Part shown: piece after piece, positions 1,835 to 48,388 of the stretch | How the letters are laid out: every line of letters begins with the position of its first letter | Numbering within the stretch: position 1 is the first letter of the stretch | Assembly: GCF_002891295.1 (NCBI RefSeq) | Contig: NZ_LGUI01000004.1 | Span: 682,001-746,000 of the forward strand | Direction: 5' to 3' | Source of the DNA: Streptomyces eurocidicus | Lineage (GTDB): Bacteria > Actinomycetota > Actinomycetes > Streptomycetales > Streptomycetaceae | Length of the DNA: 64,000 nt | Program-made: the position numbers and the translations under genes | Notes under the pieces: model-generated | Databases searched by the model: none | What the model was told of the DNA's origin: nothing | The model's input: the letters and a program-made list of their open reading frames with translations, nothing else

Positions 1835-2680
1835 TCAGTGGCGCGGCGGCGCCGCGCGGTCGGCCGTCGCGCCGGCCTCGTCCACGGCCCGGTCGGCCCA
1901 CTCCGCGAGCAGCGGCTCGGCGACCTTCGCGACGTCCGCGGCCTTGTCGGCGGCCTTGTCCGCGGCCGCCTTCTCGCGCTCGGCGGCCTCCGCCGCCTCC
2001 ATCTCCGCGAAGACGTCGATGGGCGGCGGCGCCTTGGCCAGGAAGATCCAGGTCAGATAGACCGAGAGCAGCATCGGCGGAATGCCGAGGGCCACCTTGA
2101 CCCAGCCCAGCTGGGTGGCGTCGCCCCACCAGTAGAGCGGGAAGAGGATCGCCGACTTGGCGAGCAGGATCAGCCCCCAGGCCCAGCTGGCCTTGGTGTA
2201 CGCGGCCTTGCGGCCGGGGTTGCGGGTGCGCCAGGAGAGGTTCTCCTTGAACACCGGGCCGAGGATCAGGCCGAGCAGCGGATAGCCGAAGAGCGAGGTG
2301 ACGATGTACGCCACGGCCAGCCCGAGGCTGTAGAGCATGCCCGGCAGGTAGAAGTTCTTGGCGTCGCCGGACATCATCGCGAAGACGGCGCCGAAGGCCA
2401 CCCCGAAGACGCCGCTGAAGGCGTGCTTGAGGGTGTCCTTGCCGACCAGCCGGGCGATGCCGAGCGCTACGGAGAGGCCGAGCGCGGCGATGGCCGCGAT
2501 GTGGATGTCGCGCTTCACTGTGTAGATCGCGACGAAGACGAGGCCCGGGACGGTCGTCTCGACCATGCCCCGCACTCCGCCGAACGCCTCGAACAGGGCG
2601 GCCTCCGTGGCCGATCTGGCCTCGGCGTCACCGCCGGCGCCCTGCCCTCGCTGGTCGGTCGGCTTGTCGAGAGACGTCAC
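1835..2680 (-). CDS. DUF3159 family integral membrane protein
   Basis: This is a 281-residue membrane protein of the actinobacterial DUF3159 family, of unknown function. Several hydrophobic segments lie between residues 40 and 215, including TVPGLVFVAIYTV, IAAIAALGLSVALGIARLVG, GMLYSLGLAVAYIVTSLFGY and ALGIPPMLLSVYLTWIFLA. They are followed by a charged Ala/Lys/Glu-rich C-terminal tail that looks helical. The start is GTG at 2680, three bases after the stop of the OB-fold gene, with GGAGTAGCGGGT as ribosome-binding site, so the two form an operon. In this neighbourhood DUF3159, the OB-fold protein and the RCK genes recur together in Streptomyces, which suggests an ion- or stress-related role, but nothing in the sequence proves it. 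Confidence 0.85.
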   Translation of the reverse strand: MTSLDKPTDQRGQGAGGDAEARSATEAALFEAFGGVRGMVETTVPGLVFVAIYTVKRDIHIAAIAALGLSVALGIARLVGKDTLKHAFSGVFGVAFGAVFAMMSGDAKNFYLPGMLYSLGLAVAYIVTSLFGYPLLGLILGPVFKENLSWRTRNPGRKAAYTKASWAWGLILLAKSAILFPLYWWGDATQLGWVKVALGIPPMLLSVYLTWIFLAKAPPPIDVFAEMEAAEAAEREKAAADKAADKAADVAKVAEPLLAEWADRAVDEAGATADRAAPPRH

Positions 2681-2683
2681 CCG

Positions 2684-3082
2684 CTACTCCTGTCCGAGCG
2701 GTCGGAGTTCGTACTTGGGATTGAACAGCACTCTGCGGCCGCGGCTCATGGAGATCCGGCCGGAGGCGATCAGCTTACGGCCGGGTTCTATCCCGACGAT
2801 GGAGCGGCGCCCCAGCCACACCACGTCGAGCGCGGCCGAGCCGTCGAACAGCTCGGCCTCCAGGGCGGGCACTCCGGCGCGCGGGCGGAGGGTGACCGTC
2901 CGGAGCGTACCGGTGACCTTCACTATCTGGCGGTCGTCGCAGTCGCGTATCTTCGTGCAGCCCACGGCCTCGGCGTCCTGCTGCAGCTCGGCGGAGTGGA
3001 GGTCCTCCTGCGAGGTGGACAGCCGGTCGAGCATCCGGCGGAAACGGCCGGTCGGCTTCTCGGGACGGGGTACGGCGCTCAT
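2684..3082 (-). CDS. OB-fold nucleic acid binding domain protein
   Basis: This 132-residue protein has a compact beta-rich core from about residue 50 to 130 (IVKVTGTLRTVTL, ALEAELFDGSAALDVVWLG, KLIASGRISM). It matches the short OB-fold (tRNA-anticodon/RecG-wedge type) domain seen in actinobacterial proteins encoded next to DUF3159. A charged N-terminal helix lies at 10-40. The ATG at 3082 was chosen because upstream residues of the open frame are low-complexity translation of the tandem repeats that end near 3444. It is the first gene of a two-gene operon with DUF3159. Nucleic-acid binding is inferred from the fold; no specific partner is evident. Confidence 0.8.
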   Translation of the reverse strand: MSAVPRPEKPTGRFRRMLDRLSTSQEDLHSAELQQDAEAVGCTKIRDCDDRQIVKVTGTLRTVTLRPRAGVPALEAELFDGSAALDVVWLGRRSIVGIEPGRKLIASGRISMSRGRRVLFNPKYELRPLGQE

Positions 3083-3260
3083 GCGTCCAGCGTACCGGTG
3101 GCCCCCCGGGCGGGCGTACGCCCGGAGGGCCGGTTGTCCAGTGCGAACGGGCGCGCCGGGGGTCCGCCGGGGGCGGCGGGCCGGTCCTTCCGGCGCCGGG
3201 CGACGGGCTCCCGGGCGACAAGGGGGTACGGGGCCCGGCCCCGTACCCGGAGGAAGCCCG

Positions 3261-3484
3261 CTCACACCTCGAAGCGGTATCCCGTCCCCGGCTCCGTAAT
3301 GCCGCAGCCCTCGGGGGCGACCCCCGAACCCCGGGCCGCACCCGCACCACCCCTCACACCTCGAAGCGGTACCCCATCCCCGGCTCCGTAATGCCGCAGC
3401 CCTCGGGGGCAACCCCCGAACCCCCGGCCGCACCCGCACCACCCCTCACACCTCGAACCGGTACCCCATCCCCGGCTCGGTGAT
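3261..3484. repeat. 92-bp tandem repeats copying the 3' end of kdpE
   Basis: Units begin at 3261, 3353 and 3445 with an exact period of 92 bases. The third is only partial and is the genuine 3' end of kdpE. Read on the reverse strand, each unit encodes ITEPG-x-GYRFEV and a stop codon, the C-terminus of an OmpR-type response regulator, followed by the same Pro/Gly-rich downstream sequence. The two outer units differ from each other at a few bases and are detached from any regulator gene. Confidence 0.85.
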
Positions 3485-4135
3485 GAAGTGCTTCGGGTGC
3501 GAGGGGTCCTGCTCCAGCTTCCGCCGCAGTTGCGCCATGTACACCCGCAGATAGTTCGTCTCCGTGCCGTACGACGGCCCCCAGACCTCCTGGAGCAGCT
3601 GCTTCTGGCTGACGAGACGGCCCGTATTGCGGACCAGGACCTCCAGCAGGTGCCACTCGGTCGGCGTCAGGCGGACGTCCCGCCCCTCGCGGTTGACCTT
3701 CTTGGCCGCGAGGTCGACCGTGAAGACCTCGGTCTCGACGATCGCGTCGTCCCCGGCCGCGGCCGCCCCCGTGGGCTCGGCGCGCCGCACGGCCGCGCGG
3801 AGCCGGGCGAGCAGCTCGTCCATGCCGAAGGGCTTGGTCACGTAGTCGTCGGCGCCGGCGTCGAGCGCCTCGACCTTCTCGTCGGAGGTCTGGCGGGCGG
3901 AGAGGACCAGGATCGGCACCCGGGTCCAGCCGCGCAGACCCTTGATCACCTCTACGCCGTCCATGTCGGGCAGGCCGAGGTCGAGGATGACCACGTCGGG
4001 GTGGCGGGCGGCGGCGAGCTGGAGGGCGGTGGCGCCGTCGGGCGCCGCGTCGACCTCGTACTTCCGCGCCTTGAGGTTGATCACGAGAGCGCGGACGATC
4101 TGCGGCTCGTCATCCACCACGAGCACCCGGTTCAT
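3446..4135 (-). CDS. kdpE: Response regulator KdpE
   Basis: This is a 229-residue OmpR-family response regulator for potassium limitation. The receiver domain (1-120) has the acidic pocket DDE at 8-10, phospho-acceptor Asp52 (ILDLGLPD), the LSARQ switch Ser and the conserved Lys in VTKPF. The winged-helix domain (about 130-229) contains LTPTEWHLLEVL, the recognition-helix segment TNYLRVYMAQLRRKLE and ends in GYRFEV. The start is the ATG at 4135, with AGAGGTGG eight bases upstream; an earlier in-frame ATG lacks a site. It lies 88 bases downstream of kdpD and is presumably co-transcribed, and should act on the kdpFABC promoter near 14.7 kb. Two tandem copies of its 3' end follow it. Confidence 0.93.
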   Translation of the reverse strand: MNRVLVVDDEPQIVRALVINLKARKYEVDAAPDGATALQLAAARHPDVVILDLGLPDMDGVEVIKGLRGWTRVPILVLSARQTSDEKVEALDAGADDYVTKPFGMDELLARLRAAVRRAEPTGAAAAGDDAIVETEVFTVDLAAKKVNREGRDVRLTPTEWHLLEVLVRNTGRLVSQKQLLQEVWGPSYGTETNYLRVYMAQLRRKLEQDPSHPKHFITEPGMGYRFEV

Positions 4136-46162: not shown

Positions 46163-46321
46163 TCACATGTCGGACGCAGCGGGAACCGGCTGCGGCGGGG
46201 GCGGGCCGACATAGCGGGCCGCCGGGCGGATGATCTTCGAGTCCTCCGCCTGCTCCAGGATATTGGCGCTCCAGCCGATCACCCGGGCCGCGCAGAAGGT
46301 CGGGGTCAGCTTCTCGGCCCT
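46163..46321 (-). pseudogene. C-terminal remnant of a citrate synthase-family gene (reverse)
   Basis: The last 49 codons before a TGA at 46163 read [20 protein letters not shown] then [16 protein letters not shown]. This is the conserved C-terminal end of citrate synthases (a 'TPLF-x-AR-x-x-GW-x-AHxxEQ...RPxARYVG' pattern). Nothing further upstream in this frame is citrate synthase, because the TnpB element begins within about 40 bases. The original gene was probably co-transcribed with the CobW-type GTPase, whose possible GTG start overlaps this stop. The catalytic residues are all lost. Confidence 0.8.
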
Positions 46322-47574
46322 GAAGGGACCGGGCCTGCCGGCTCGGTCGGGAGGGCGTTGATTACAAGTGGAGCGCGGCCGGCTACCGCGTGGTTCCCCT
46401 GCGTCCGGAACCGGCTCGCGCCGGTTCTGGGGCGGTTGACTGCGCCCCGCTGCCACGCAGCCTCGCCGCGATAGGCGATGTTGCGGGAGCCGTTGTGGTC
46501 CGCGTGCCGCACGGTCCCGCAGGACCGGCATACGAACCGCGCTTGATCCACCCGGTTGGTCCGGTGGGTGTGCCAGCACTCCGAGCACTGGCGGGAGGTG
46601 TTGCGCGGGTCCACGAAGACCACGGGCACACCCGCCCGTCGCGCCTTGTACTCGACGTATGCGCCGAGCTGGGCGAAAGCCCAGGAGTGCAGCCGTGCCC
46701 GCTGGTCCTTCTTGGCCGTAACCCTCTGCCGGATACCGCCCAGGTCTTCCAGGGCGATCCCGCGCGAGGTGCGTTCAGCGGTGGCAACGAGCTTCTTGGC
46801 GATGATGTGGTTGGTGTTCGCGGCGTGCCGGGCCTCGCGGCGGCGGACACGCTTCAGGACCCGCTTCGCGGACTTGGTCCGCTTCTTCTGCAACTTGGTC
46901 CGCAGATCACGCTGCCGCTTGCGGTACCGATTGAGCCCACGCCCGGCCATGATCTGACCGTCACTGGTGGTGGCGATATTGACGATGCCCAGGTCCACGC
47001 CGAGGAACCCGTCCGGCTCGAACACCTCGGGCTCTGGCACGTCGATAGTGGCGATGAGGAAAAACATCCCGTCCCGCATCACCAAGTCGGACTCCCCCTT
47101 ACGGGAAGCCAGCAACTTCATGGTCTGCTCGGAACAGACGAACGGGATGCCCTTCAACCGTCCGGCCACGGTCCAGATCGACACCGTGCGCTGATCGAGG
47201 TTCCACGTCAGGATGCGGTCATCGAACGGCTGCGCCGCGTCCTCTCGGAACACGATGGGCTTGGACTCCGCGCGGCGGCGACCCTTCGAACCCTCCGGGC
47301 CAAGATTCCCGGCCTTGATATTGCCCTTCAGCGTGGCGTAGGCGTCACAGACCTTCTTCACCACCCGCACAGAGGGCTGGGCCCCGAGGTCGTAGTCAGC
47401 CTTGAGCGCGAAGTACACCTCCTTCTGCAACACGTTTCGCCGTTTGAGGCCCTTGGCGAACGCCACCCCGGAAGCGTGGTTCGCGGCCCGGTTGCAAGCA
47501 CGCAGAGTCGCTGCCAGTGCGTCCGCGTCGTGCGCGGCCACAGGCACCAACTTCACCTGCGCGACAATCTTCAC
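46306..47574 (-). CDS. tnpB: TnpB-type RNA-guided endonuclease (IS200/IS605 superfamily)
   Basis: This 422-residue TnpB has an N-terminal REC/wedge part ([28 protein letters not shown]) and a split RuvC nuclease. Asp194 lies in [11 protein letters not shown], Glu276 in [11 protein letters not shown] and Asp359 in [10 protein letters not shown]. The zinc finger ligands are C330, C333, C349 and C352. All three acidic residues are intact, so it may be an active omega-RNA-guided nuclease. The start is GTG 47574; the open frame extending to 47895 is antisense to a citrate synthase remnant. The last 15-20 residues run past the likely element end into flanking sequence, so the native C-terminus may be shorter. 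No tnpA is present. Confidence 0.9.
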
Positions 47575-47655
47575 GCAAAACACGCTAGTACGACTCGCCA
47601 CAGAGAGACAACTTGCCCTCGGAGCCGCGCCGAAGAGAATTCCGCCTCTTCGTGG
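46340..47655 (-). mobile_element. IS200/IS605-like element carrying only tnpB
   Basis: The element contains tnpB and its ends. A hairpin within the tnpB 3' region (46405-46430, arms around AACCGGC/GCCGGTT) fits the structured right end and omega-RNA. On the 5' side a CGAAGAG...CTCTTCG hairpin at 47631-47652 fits the subterminal left-end hairpin. There is no TnpA, so mobility would need one in trans. Terminal inverted repeats and target duplications are absent, as expected for this family. Exact borders are uncertain by about 30 bases at each end. Confidence 0.65.
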
Positions 47656-47659
47656 CCCC

Positions 47660-48304
47660 GCGTCGAAGGAGCCATTCCCAGAGCTGACGCCCCGGATGCC
47701 CGACGCGGCGTCACTGCGGGCCCTGGAGGCCGCCCTCGTGCTGCTCATCGACCACGACCTCGCCGCCTCCACGCTCGCGGTGCGGGTCGCGGCCTCCGCG
47801 CGGGCCCACCCGTACGCGGTGGTCTCGGCCGGGCTCGGCGCGCTGGAGGGGCCGCTGCACGGCGCGGCGAGCGGCCTGGCGCACCGGATGCTCACCGAGG
47901 TGCTGGAGCGCGGCAGTGCGGCGGCCGTGGTGGCGGACCATCTGCGGGGCGGGCGGAGCGTCCCGGGGCTGGGGCACCGGCTCTACGCGGGCCCGGACCC
48001 CCGGGCGCGGGCGCTGTTCGCCCGCCTGGAGTCCGTCCCGGGCGCCCGGGACGCCCTGGCGGCGGCGCGGGAGGTGGAGGCGACGGCGGCCCGGCAGGGC
48101 ACCCCGCACGCCAACGCCGACCTCGCGCTCGCGGTGCTCACGGTCGCGTCCGGGATGCCCCCGGAGGCGGGCGAGACGGTCTTCGCCGTGGCCCGTACGG
48201 CCGGCTGGATCGCCCATGCCCTGGAGGAGTACGCGGAGCGTCCGCTGCGGCTCCGGCCCGTCGGCCAGTACTGCGGCCCGAAACCCCCTCGGGCGATGCC
48301 GTGA
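47660..48304 (+). pseudogene. C-terminal half of a second citrate synthase-family gene (forward)
   Basis: About 200 codons encode the small domain of a citrate synthase: SLRALEAALVLLIDHDLAAS, GPLHGAA (first catalytic His), VPGLGHRLYAG (second His), NADLALAVLT (catalytic Asp region) and FAVARTAGWIAHALEEY, ending LRLRPVGQYCGPKPP. The large-domain N-terminal half is absent, since the TnpB element lies immediately upstream. An ATG at 47696 could start a 202-residue product, but it has no spaced ribosome-binding site, and half a citrate synthase is unlikely to fold normally. This gene and the reverse remnant at 46163 point away from each other. Confidence 0.78.
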
Positions 48305-48353: not shown

Positions 48354-48388
48354 TACAATCTACGCCGAGGTAGGTTAGGCTAACCTTC
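48354..48388 (+). promoter_or_regulatory. Iron box (DmdR1/IdeR-type operator) with a -10-like hexamer
   Basis: The 19 bases at 48370-48388 match the actinobacterial iron-box palindrome at about 16 of 19 positions, with the core TAGGTTAGGCTAACCT intact. A TACAAT hexamer at 48354-48359 could be the -10 element, which would put the transcript start inside or at the edge of the box. The box ends one base before the GTG start, so a bound iron-loaded repressor would block transcription. Confidence 0.88.

What the first reader, a model, noticed from the sequence alone, without database searches (positions are those of the whole stretch)
46163..48304. TnpB element sitting between two decapitated, divergent citrate synthase genes
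On the left is the last ~50 codons of one citrate-synthase-family gene (reverse); on the right the C-terminal ~200 codons of another (forward). Both 5' parts and the shared promoter region are gone, and a tnpB with intact D194/E276/D359 and zinc finger occupies the gap. Simple insertion would have left the 5' halves in place, so an insertion with a deletion of some 1.5-2 kb, possibly caused by TnpB cutting and repair, is the best reading. The strain thus probably lacks both accessory citrate synthases.
Basis: partly seen in the sequence, partly recalled or inferred. Interest (0 to 1): 0.7.

Follow-up and report, generated by a model that had tools for sequence, protein, structure and literature searches.

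The report
TnpB insertion decapitating two citrate-synthase genes
In this Streptomyces, a small mobile element that carries an RNA-guided DNA-cutting enzyme landed in one of two neighbouring citrate-synthase-like genes, and about 1.8 kb next to it was lost, removing the front parts of both genes; the insertion is ordinary for its kind, and how the DNA was lost is open.

Summary
Left: the last 46 codons of one citrate-synthase (CS) gene; right: about the last 207 codons of a divergent one; between them an open, conserved tnpB (D194/E276/D359, zinc finger). Intact relatives fix the event. The element's right end (RE, 46305) sits where left-CS orthologs carry TTCAC (80 of 81 scored), and TTCAC also precedes the left end (LE) of three copies in one relative genome: a TAM-directed insertion into the left gene. 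The LE side is not such a joint: TTCAC is absent and right-CS sequence starts mid-gene at about 47683. Against relative G060 about 1,779 bp are missing. That TnpB caused the deletion is not shown: its cut would fall on the guide side, where the junction is clean, and another species lost both 5' halves without the element. An aborted TnpB-driven repair copying (RE kept, LE lost) stays possible. The pair is dispensable (right-gene match in 128 of 199 genus genomes, own fragment counted), and three other CS-family genes are intact. An ordinary kind of event, well resolved.

The parts
46163..46304 (-). 3' fragment (46 codons plus stop) of the left citrate-synthase gene
   Evidence: Pfam positions 326-357 of 357; frame [11 protein letters not shown]... 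matches intact orthologs
46285..46304 (-). Guide-equivalent 20 nt next to the RE; its target lies in the left CS gene
   Evidence: TTCAC directly 5' of this stretch in 80 of 81 scored of 87 loci given and 82 of 83 scored of 89 given, 2 of 83 match all 20 nt and 6 differ at one
46305..46449 (-). Element right end with predicted omega-RNA scaffold; ends in CTGAC (TTGAC or TCGAC in close copies)
   Evidence: RE boundary from three G040 copies with different flanks; hairpin kept with differing pairs in the 14 copies folded
46306..47574 (-). tnpB, GTG start, 422 aa; lacks the stop codon used by close copies
47575..47687 (-). Left-end remnant; tip and TTCAC lost (outer limit uncertain)
   Evidence: No TTCAC within 330 bp upstream of tnpB here; 15 of the 16 other copies at 75% identity or more have one, though not all of those need be true TAMs. 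Best local LE alignments to 15 copies end anywhere from 47608 to 47711
47677..47687 (.). Likely deletion joint between LE and right CS; possible GCTGA micro-homology at 47683-47687
   Evidence: ancestral bases inferred from relatives only
47683..48304 (+). 3' fragment (about 207 codons) of the right citrate-synthase gene

Best explanation
A tnpB-only element of the IS200/IS605 type inserted 3' of a TTCAC target in the conserved [10 protein letters not shown] codons of the left citrate-synthase gene. Afterwards one illegitimate deletion, starting in the element's left-end tip, removed that tip, the TTCAC, the 5' part of the left gene, the shared promoter region and the 5' half of the right gene, perhaps through a short GCTGA micro-homology. 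Shown: both partial genes, the TTCAC in orthologs, the RE boundary, the missing segment. Inferred: the order of events, the micro-homology, and that the joining was ordinary repair and not driven by TnpB. What is left is an immobilised but apparently intact tnpB and omega-RNA gene whose guide matches the intact CS allele of some relatives.
For: The RE junction falls on TTCAC of left-CS orthologs: 80 of 81 scored, 82 of 83 scored (one locus, L048/L069, is counted twice in both). Three copies in G040 (L051, L052, L187) all have TTCAC before the LE and diverge right after TTGAC at the RE. G060 has 1,783 bp between the matched flanks where the window has 1,381; about 1,779 bp of host DNA are missing. 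No TTCAC at the window's LE; in G060 the three TTCAC of the 2.6-kb pair lie 546 bp or more from the right break point. tnpB is under constraint: dN/dS 0.145-0.228 against eight close copies. The right fragment has dN/dS 0.145-0.182 against four relatives, intact orthologs 0.137-0.194 in the four pairs computed, so the loss looks recent. In one search (392 genus genomes) no listed match except the own one runs past base 55 of the 86-base left-junction probe, that is, more than 12 bases into the element; weaker matches were not listed.
Against: No strain with the intermediate state (full LE, no deletion) was found, so the order is inferred. The LE of this lineage is unknown, close copies differ (L157 and L159 lack the usual hairpin), and best LE alignments end anywhere from 47608 to 47711, some running into certain CS sequence; so the LE bases lost (roughly 10-40) and the micro-homology are uncertain. 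L-T at the expected spacing, my sign for where CS begins, is present in 23 of the 29 orthologs printed. TTCAC holds for the close clade only: of 23 more distant copies (60-66%) 2 have any TTCAC within 330 bp upstream.
Confidence: 0.62

Rival explanations
1. Aborted TnpB homing. TnpB cut an empty copy of the left CS gene; the guide-side end, fully homologous to the occupied copy, invaded it and copied RE, tnpB and part of the LE; synthesis stopped in the LE and the end was joined to the resected other side, 1.8 kb away, in the right CS gene. The polarity (RE clean, LE and TAM side lost) follows from the cut position.
For: RE and guide flank intact, loss only on the LE/TAM side; LE similarity to hairpin-bearing copies fades at or near that hairpin; tnpB conserved and its guide matches some orthologous alleles; cut 15-21 bp from the TAM and a repair-by-copying model in PMC8612924 (passages).
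Against: LE loss is also what drift would leave, since TnpB needs only the RE (inference); one event gives no statistics. No Y1 transposase in this genome, so empty sites would have to come from incoming DNA or from a past transposase. L130 lost both 5' halves without an element. L157 and L159 lack the LE hairpin at which copying is supposed to stop.
Confidence: 0.2
2. One-ended or faulty integration: the RE was joined to the target but the LE never to TTCAC; the break was mended by end joining to a distant site.
For: Same final structure as above.
Against: Known IS200/IS605 integration joins both ends (recalled); nothing in the sequence tells it from the leading reading.
Confidence: 0.1
3. 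Two element copies, one in each CS gene, recombined and removed the part between them.
For: Would explain loss of both 5' parts.
Against: The right junction has no TTCAC, and G060 has none near the right break point. The genome holds one full copy.
Confidence: 0.03
4. Assembly artefact.
For: None found.
Against: One full copy of the element in the genome, inside an 801,731-bp contig; the RE junction coincides with a TTCAC of the orthologs.
Confidence: 0.03

Closest known systems
IS200/IS605-type elements with TnpB, ISDra2 as the studied case
   Same: TnpB with RuvC D/E/D and zinc finger; RE overlaps the tnpB 3' end; insertion 3' of a fixed pentamer that doubles as TAM (TTGAT in ISDra2, passages of PMC8612924; TTCAC here); guide read from the flank
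   Different: No Y1 tnpA in the whole genome; LE tip and TAM lost; usual tnpB stop lost
tnpB-only elements (IS1341 group; name recalled)
   Same: tnpB without tnpA between LE and RE
   Different: LE truncated with a 1.8-kb flank deletion
SCO5831 (citA3) / SCO5832 (citA4) pair of S. coelicolor
   Same: Two CS-family genes with a shared intergenic region, which was predicted to hold, and shown by EMSA to bind, an MtrA site (passages of PMC12323332). Orthology with this locus is assumed from the layout; the S. coelicolor genes were not compared here
   Different: Both 5' parts and the intergenic region are gone

Membership tests
IS200/IS605-type TnpB | RuvC D, E, D and zinc-finger cysteines | tested here: met
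   D194, E276, D359; CSEC and CRSC motifs
IS200/IS605-type TnpB | Profile membership over a curated cut-off | tested here: met
   NF040570 guided_TnpB 178 bits, cut-off 100, and TIGR01766 58.6 bits, cut-off 32; PF07282 and PF01385 over cut-off. The IS200_TnpB (55.5 of 425) and IS607_TnpB (52.7 of 350) exception models are not reached
IS200/IS605-type element | Insertion 3' of a fixed short motif | tested here: met
   TTCAC at the empty site in 80 of 81 orthologs scored; same motif before the LE of three G040 copies
IS200/IS605-type element | Structured right end ending at the boundary (omega-RNA scaffold) | tested here: inconclusive
   One hairpin kept with differing pairs in the 14 copies folded; fold of the window's RE region not better than shuffles (z -0.97); Rfam in E-value mode gave one match, below its gathering score
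IS200/IS605-type element | Y1 transposase tnpA | tested here: not met
   PF01797: 0 matches in the genome, control positive in 5 of 14 genomes. Isolated tnpB genes are known in the family (passage of PMC8612924)
IS200/IS605-type element | Intact left end joined to the motif | tested here: not met
   No TTCAC at the LE side; right CS joined instead
IS200/IS605-type TnpB | RNA-guided cleavage | not testable with these tools
   needs biochemistry
IS607-type element | Serine recombinase tnpA | not tested
   no search was made
Citrate synthase (left and right genes as they stand) | Full CS domain | tested here: not met
   326-357 and 160-351 of 357 positions only

The most novel reading that the evidence does not exclude
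This is the fossil of an aborted TnpB homing event: the RNA-guided cut of an empty allele was repaired by copying the element from its RE towards its LE, the copying broke off in the LE, and end joining to the resected TAM side deleted 1.8 kb of host DNA. TnpB elements would then be a directional source of flank deletions, on the TAM side.
Probability: 0.2. Interest if true: 0.62.

Novelty: new member of a known kind. Interest (0 to 1): 0.36.

Why it matters
It is a natural insertion whose target, TAM, guide and deletion can be read closely, in a well-studied genus. If TnpB repair leaves one-sided flank deletions, these elements would be a mutational force on host genes; this locus gives a concrete, testable prediction (loss on the TAM side, RE kept). 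It also points to a TTCAC-type TnpB clade with a target that is nearly invariant in one CS gene of Streptomyces, and shows that the CS pair is dispensable.

Tried and rejected
Rfam search of the locus: one sub-threshold snoU54 match, taken as chance. Single-sequence fold of the RE: z -0.97, no support by itself. Two-copy recombination: disfavoured for lack of a TTCAC at the right joint. A TnpB cut in the right gene: in the 2.6 kb of the intact G060 pair three TTCAC sites exist, and only the insertion site resembles the guide (1 mismatch in 12; the others 5 and 7). Self-targeting: TAM plus 15 nt of guide with up to 3 mismatches hits the genome three times, the best being the RE junction itself with 2 mismatches; the reversed control hits five times. 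Reading LE loss in other copies as a trend: L160, L188, L157 and L159 have unclear left ends, too few and without empty sites, so not counted. Apparent truncation of the right CS in G019 and G149 was an alignment effect; both are full length. Plasmid search: 25 records, two at 80-90% identity and 23 at 60-80%, so no close copy there. Phage records were not searched.

Paper searches. The search for flank deletions or truncated left ends of TnpB elements returned no paper; one search listed 8 of 17 papers, of which only PMC12477157 was opened, for other passages. Passages of PMC11870625 and PMC10711439 were seen and gave nothing on such deletions. No claim that aborted homing is unreported is made beyond these.

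Full report
What is there. Window 46163-46304 (-) holds the last 46 codons of one citrate-synthase (CS) gene, 47683-48304 (+) about the last 207 codons of a divergent one, and a tnpB on the minus strand (46306-47574) lies between. The tnpB has no internal stop; with the GTG at 47574 as residue 1 the RuvC residues are D194, E276 and D359, and the zinc-finger cysteines are present. The genome has this one copy, one 30% relative, and no Y1 transposase match. The window is part of an 801,731-bp contig of a 7.93-Mb genome. The genus is inferred to be Streptomyces: most named relatives are, and G048, of the same genus, has a contig of the same length and locus sequence as S. rimosus L069. The strain itself is not named to me.

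The intact state. In G060 (L044) the left CS is 382 aa on the minus strand and the right CS 430 aa on the plus strand, 99 bp apart, with cobW and a sucrase/ferredoxin-like gene on the outside as in the window. Of 80 named loci fetched for the right fragment (best 80 of 119), 73 show a left CS beside it (L095 in two pieces); L116, L131, L134, L137 and L143 show none in the stretch held, L119 only a piece at the edge of the stretch, and L130 a fragment. In a draw of 199 genus genomes (own included) 128 have a right-CS match, the own fragment counted, and 125 a left-CS match at E <= 1e-90. So the pair is common but dispensable.

The insertion. Three copies of a related element in G040 with different flanks all have TTCAC before the left end and diverge right after TTGAC. 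In the window the right end finishes in CTGAC at 46305. At that point left-CS orthologs read TTCAC in 80 of 81 scored of 87 given, and in 82 of 83 scored of 89 given (largely the same loci, and L048/L069 are one locus counted twice); it encodes F-T of the [10 protein letters not shown] stretch. So the element went in 3' of a TTCAC inside the left gene, and the flank from 46304 downwards is the guide. Among the 83 the 20-nt guide matches fully in 2 and with one mismatch in 6. The TTCAC assignment is for the close clade: 15 of 16 other copies at 75% identity or more have a TTCAC within 330 bp upstream of tnpB, at varied distances, against 2 of 23 copies at 60-66%.

The deletion. On the other side TTCAC is missing: none lies within 330 bp upstream of the window's tnpB. 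Right-CS codons begin at about 47683: L-T stands at the right distance before PDAASL, as in 23 of the 29 orthologs printed. Where the left end stops is less sure: best local alignments with 15 copies end anywhere from 47608 to 47711, some running into certain CS sequence; read together with the CS start I put the joint at 47677-47687. Against G060 the missing host DNA is about 2156-3934, 1,779 bp: about 337 left codons, the intergenic region and 223 right codons. Relatives suggest a shared GCTGA at the joint (left-end hairpin apex and right CS), but the ancestral bases are not known, and close copies L157 and L159 lack that hairpin.

Age. The right fragment shows dN/dS of 0.145-0.182 against four relatives, and intact orthologs 0.137-0.194 in the four pairs computed, so there is no sign of long decay. 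tnpB shows 0.145-0.228 against eight copies. With an 86-base probe over the left junction, no listed match in 392 genus genomes other than the own one went past base 55, 12 bases into the element (weaker matches not listed). The stop codon that close copies have in or beside a hairpin has become a sense codon here, while the hairpin has the lowest fold energy of the 14 folded; the protein runs 35-37 codons further than those of L156 and L015, to the element's end.

Did TnpB cause it? Experiments on ISDra2 place the cut 15-21 bp from the TAM in the empty site and propose repair by copying from the occupied sister (passages of PMC8612924). A plain cut and end joining would damage the guide side and leave no element; here the guide side is clean. 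An aborted copying event, starting from the guide-side end and stopping in the left end, would give what is seen; but so would any later deletion starting in the left end. Streptantibioticus ferralitis (L130) has lost both 5' halves by a direct join at about 4960 with no element, and G018 (L061) has no CS pair between cobW and the ferredoxin-like gene. Such losses thus arise without TnpB. I therefore rate ordinary deletion first and aborted homing second.

Consequences. Three CS-family genes remain intact: a citrate synthase (PRK05614), a bifunctional 2-methylcitrate/citrate synthase (PRK14033) and a PRK12350-type (660 bits, cut-off 332), the subfamily to which the left gene of G060 also belongs (343.5 bits). 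The right gene of the pair has an excisionase-type DNA-binding domain at residues 30-78 in G060 (29.3 bits, cut-off 28.8) and scores below the cut-off of each CS model listed, so it may be a regulator; that part is deleted here. In S. coelicolor the region between SCO5831 and SCO5832 binds MtrA (passages of PMC12323332); orthology is assumed from layout.

Verdict.

Noticed in passing
L044:3265-4554 (G060); the N-terminal part is deleted in the window: The right 'citrate synthase' carries an N-terminal excisionase-type helix-turn-helix (residues 30-78, 29.3 bits, cut-off 28.8) and falls below the cut-off of each NCBIfam CS model listed: a possible regulator made from a CS.
   Followed up: partly
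L130, about 4960: Streptantibioticus ferralitis JCM 14344 has both CS genes decapitated by a direct join without any element: an independent double decapitation.
   Followed up: partly
L061 (G018), 1661-1806: cobW and the sucrase/ferredoxin-like gene lie side by side; the CS pair is absent.
   Followed up: partly
L197 and L198 (G012): Left CS gene split between two chromosomal places about 4.5 Mb apart: residues 78-379 at one, residues 4-96 beside the right CS at the other; looks like a rearrangement break point in the gene.
   Followed up: partly
L196 (G137), 2417-3786: Right CS in two frames with a gap of about 165 bp between the two matches, probably a frameshift or insertion.
   Followed up: no
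46405-46428 (-): The tnpB stop codon that close copies carry in or beside a hairpin is lost here while the hairpin is fully paired, so TnpB reads on to the element end.
   Followed up: partly
L044:3166-3264: The intact intergenic region holds two copies in tandem of AGCAGGTGATCGAT, perhaps an operator.
   Followed up: no
48370-48388 (+): GTAGGTTAGGCTAACCTTC upstream of the sucrase/ferredoxin-like gene resembles an iron box (motif recalled; sequence).
   Followed up: no
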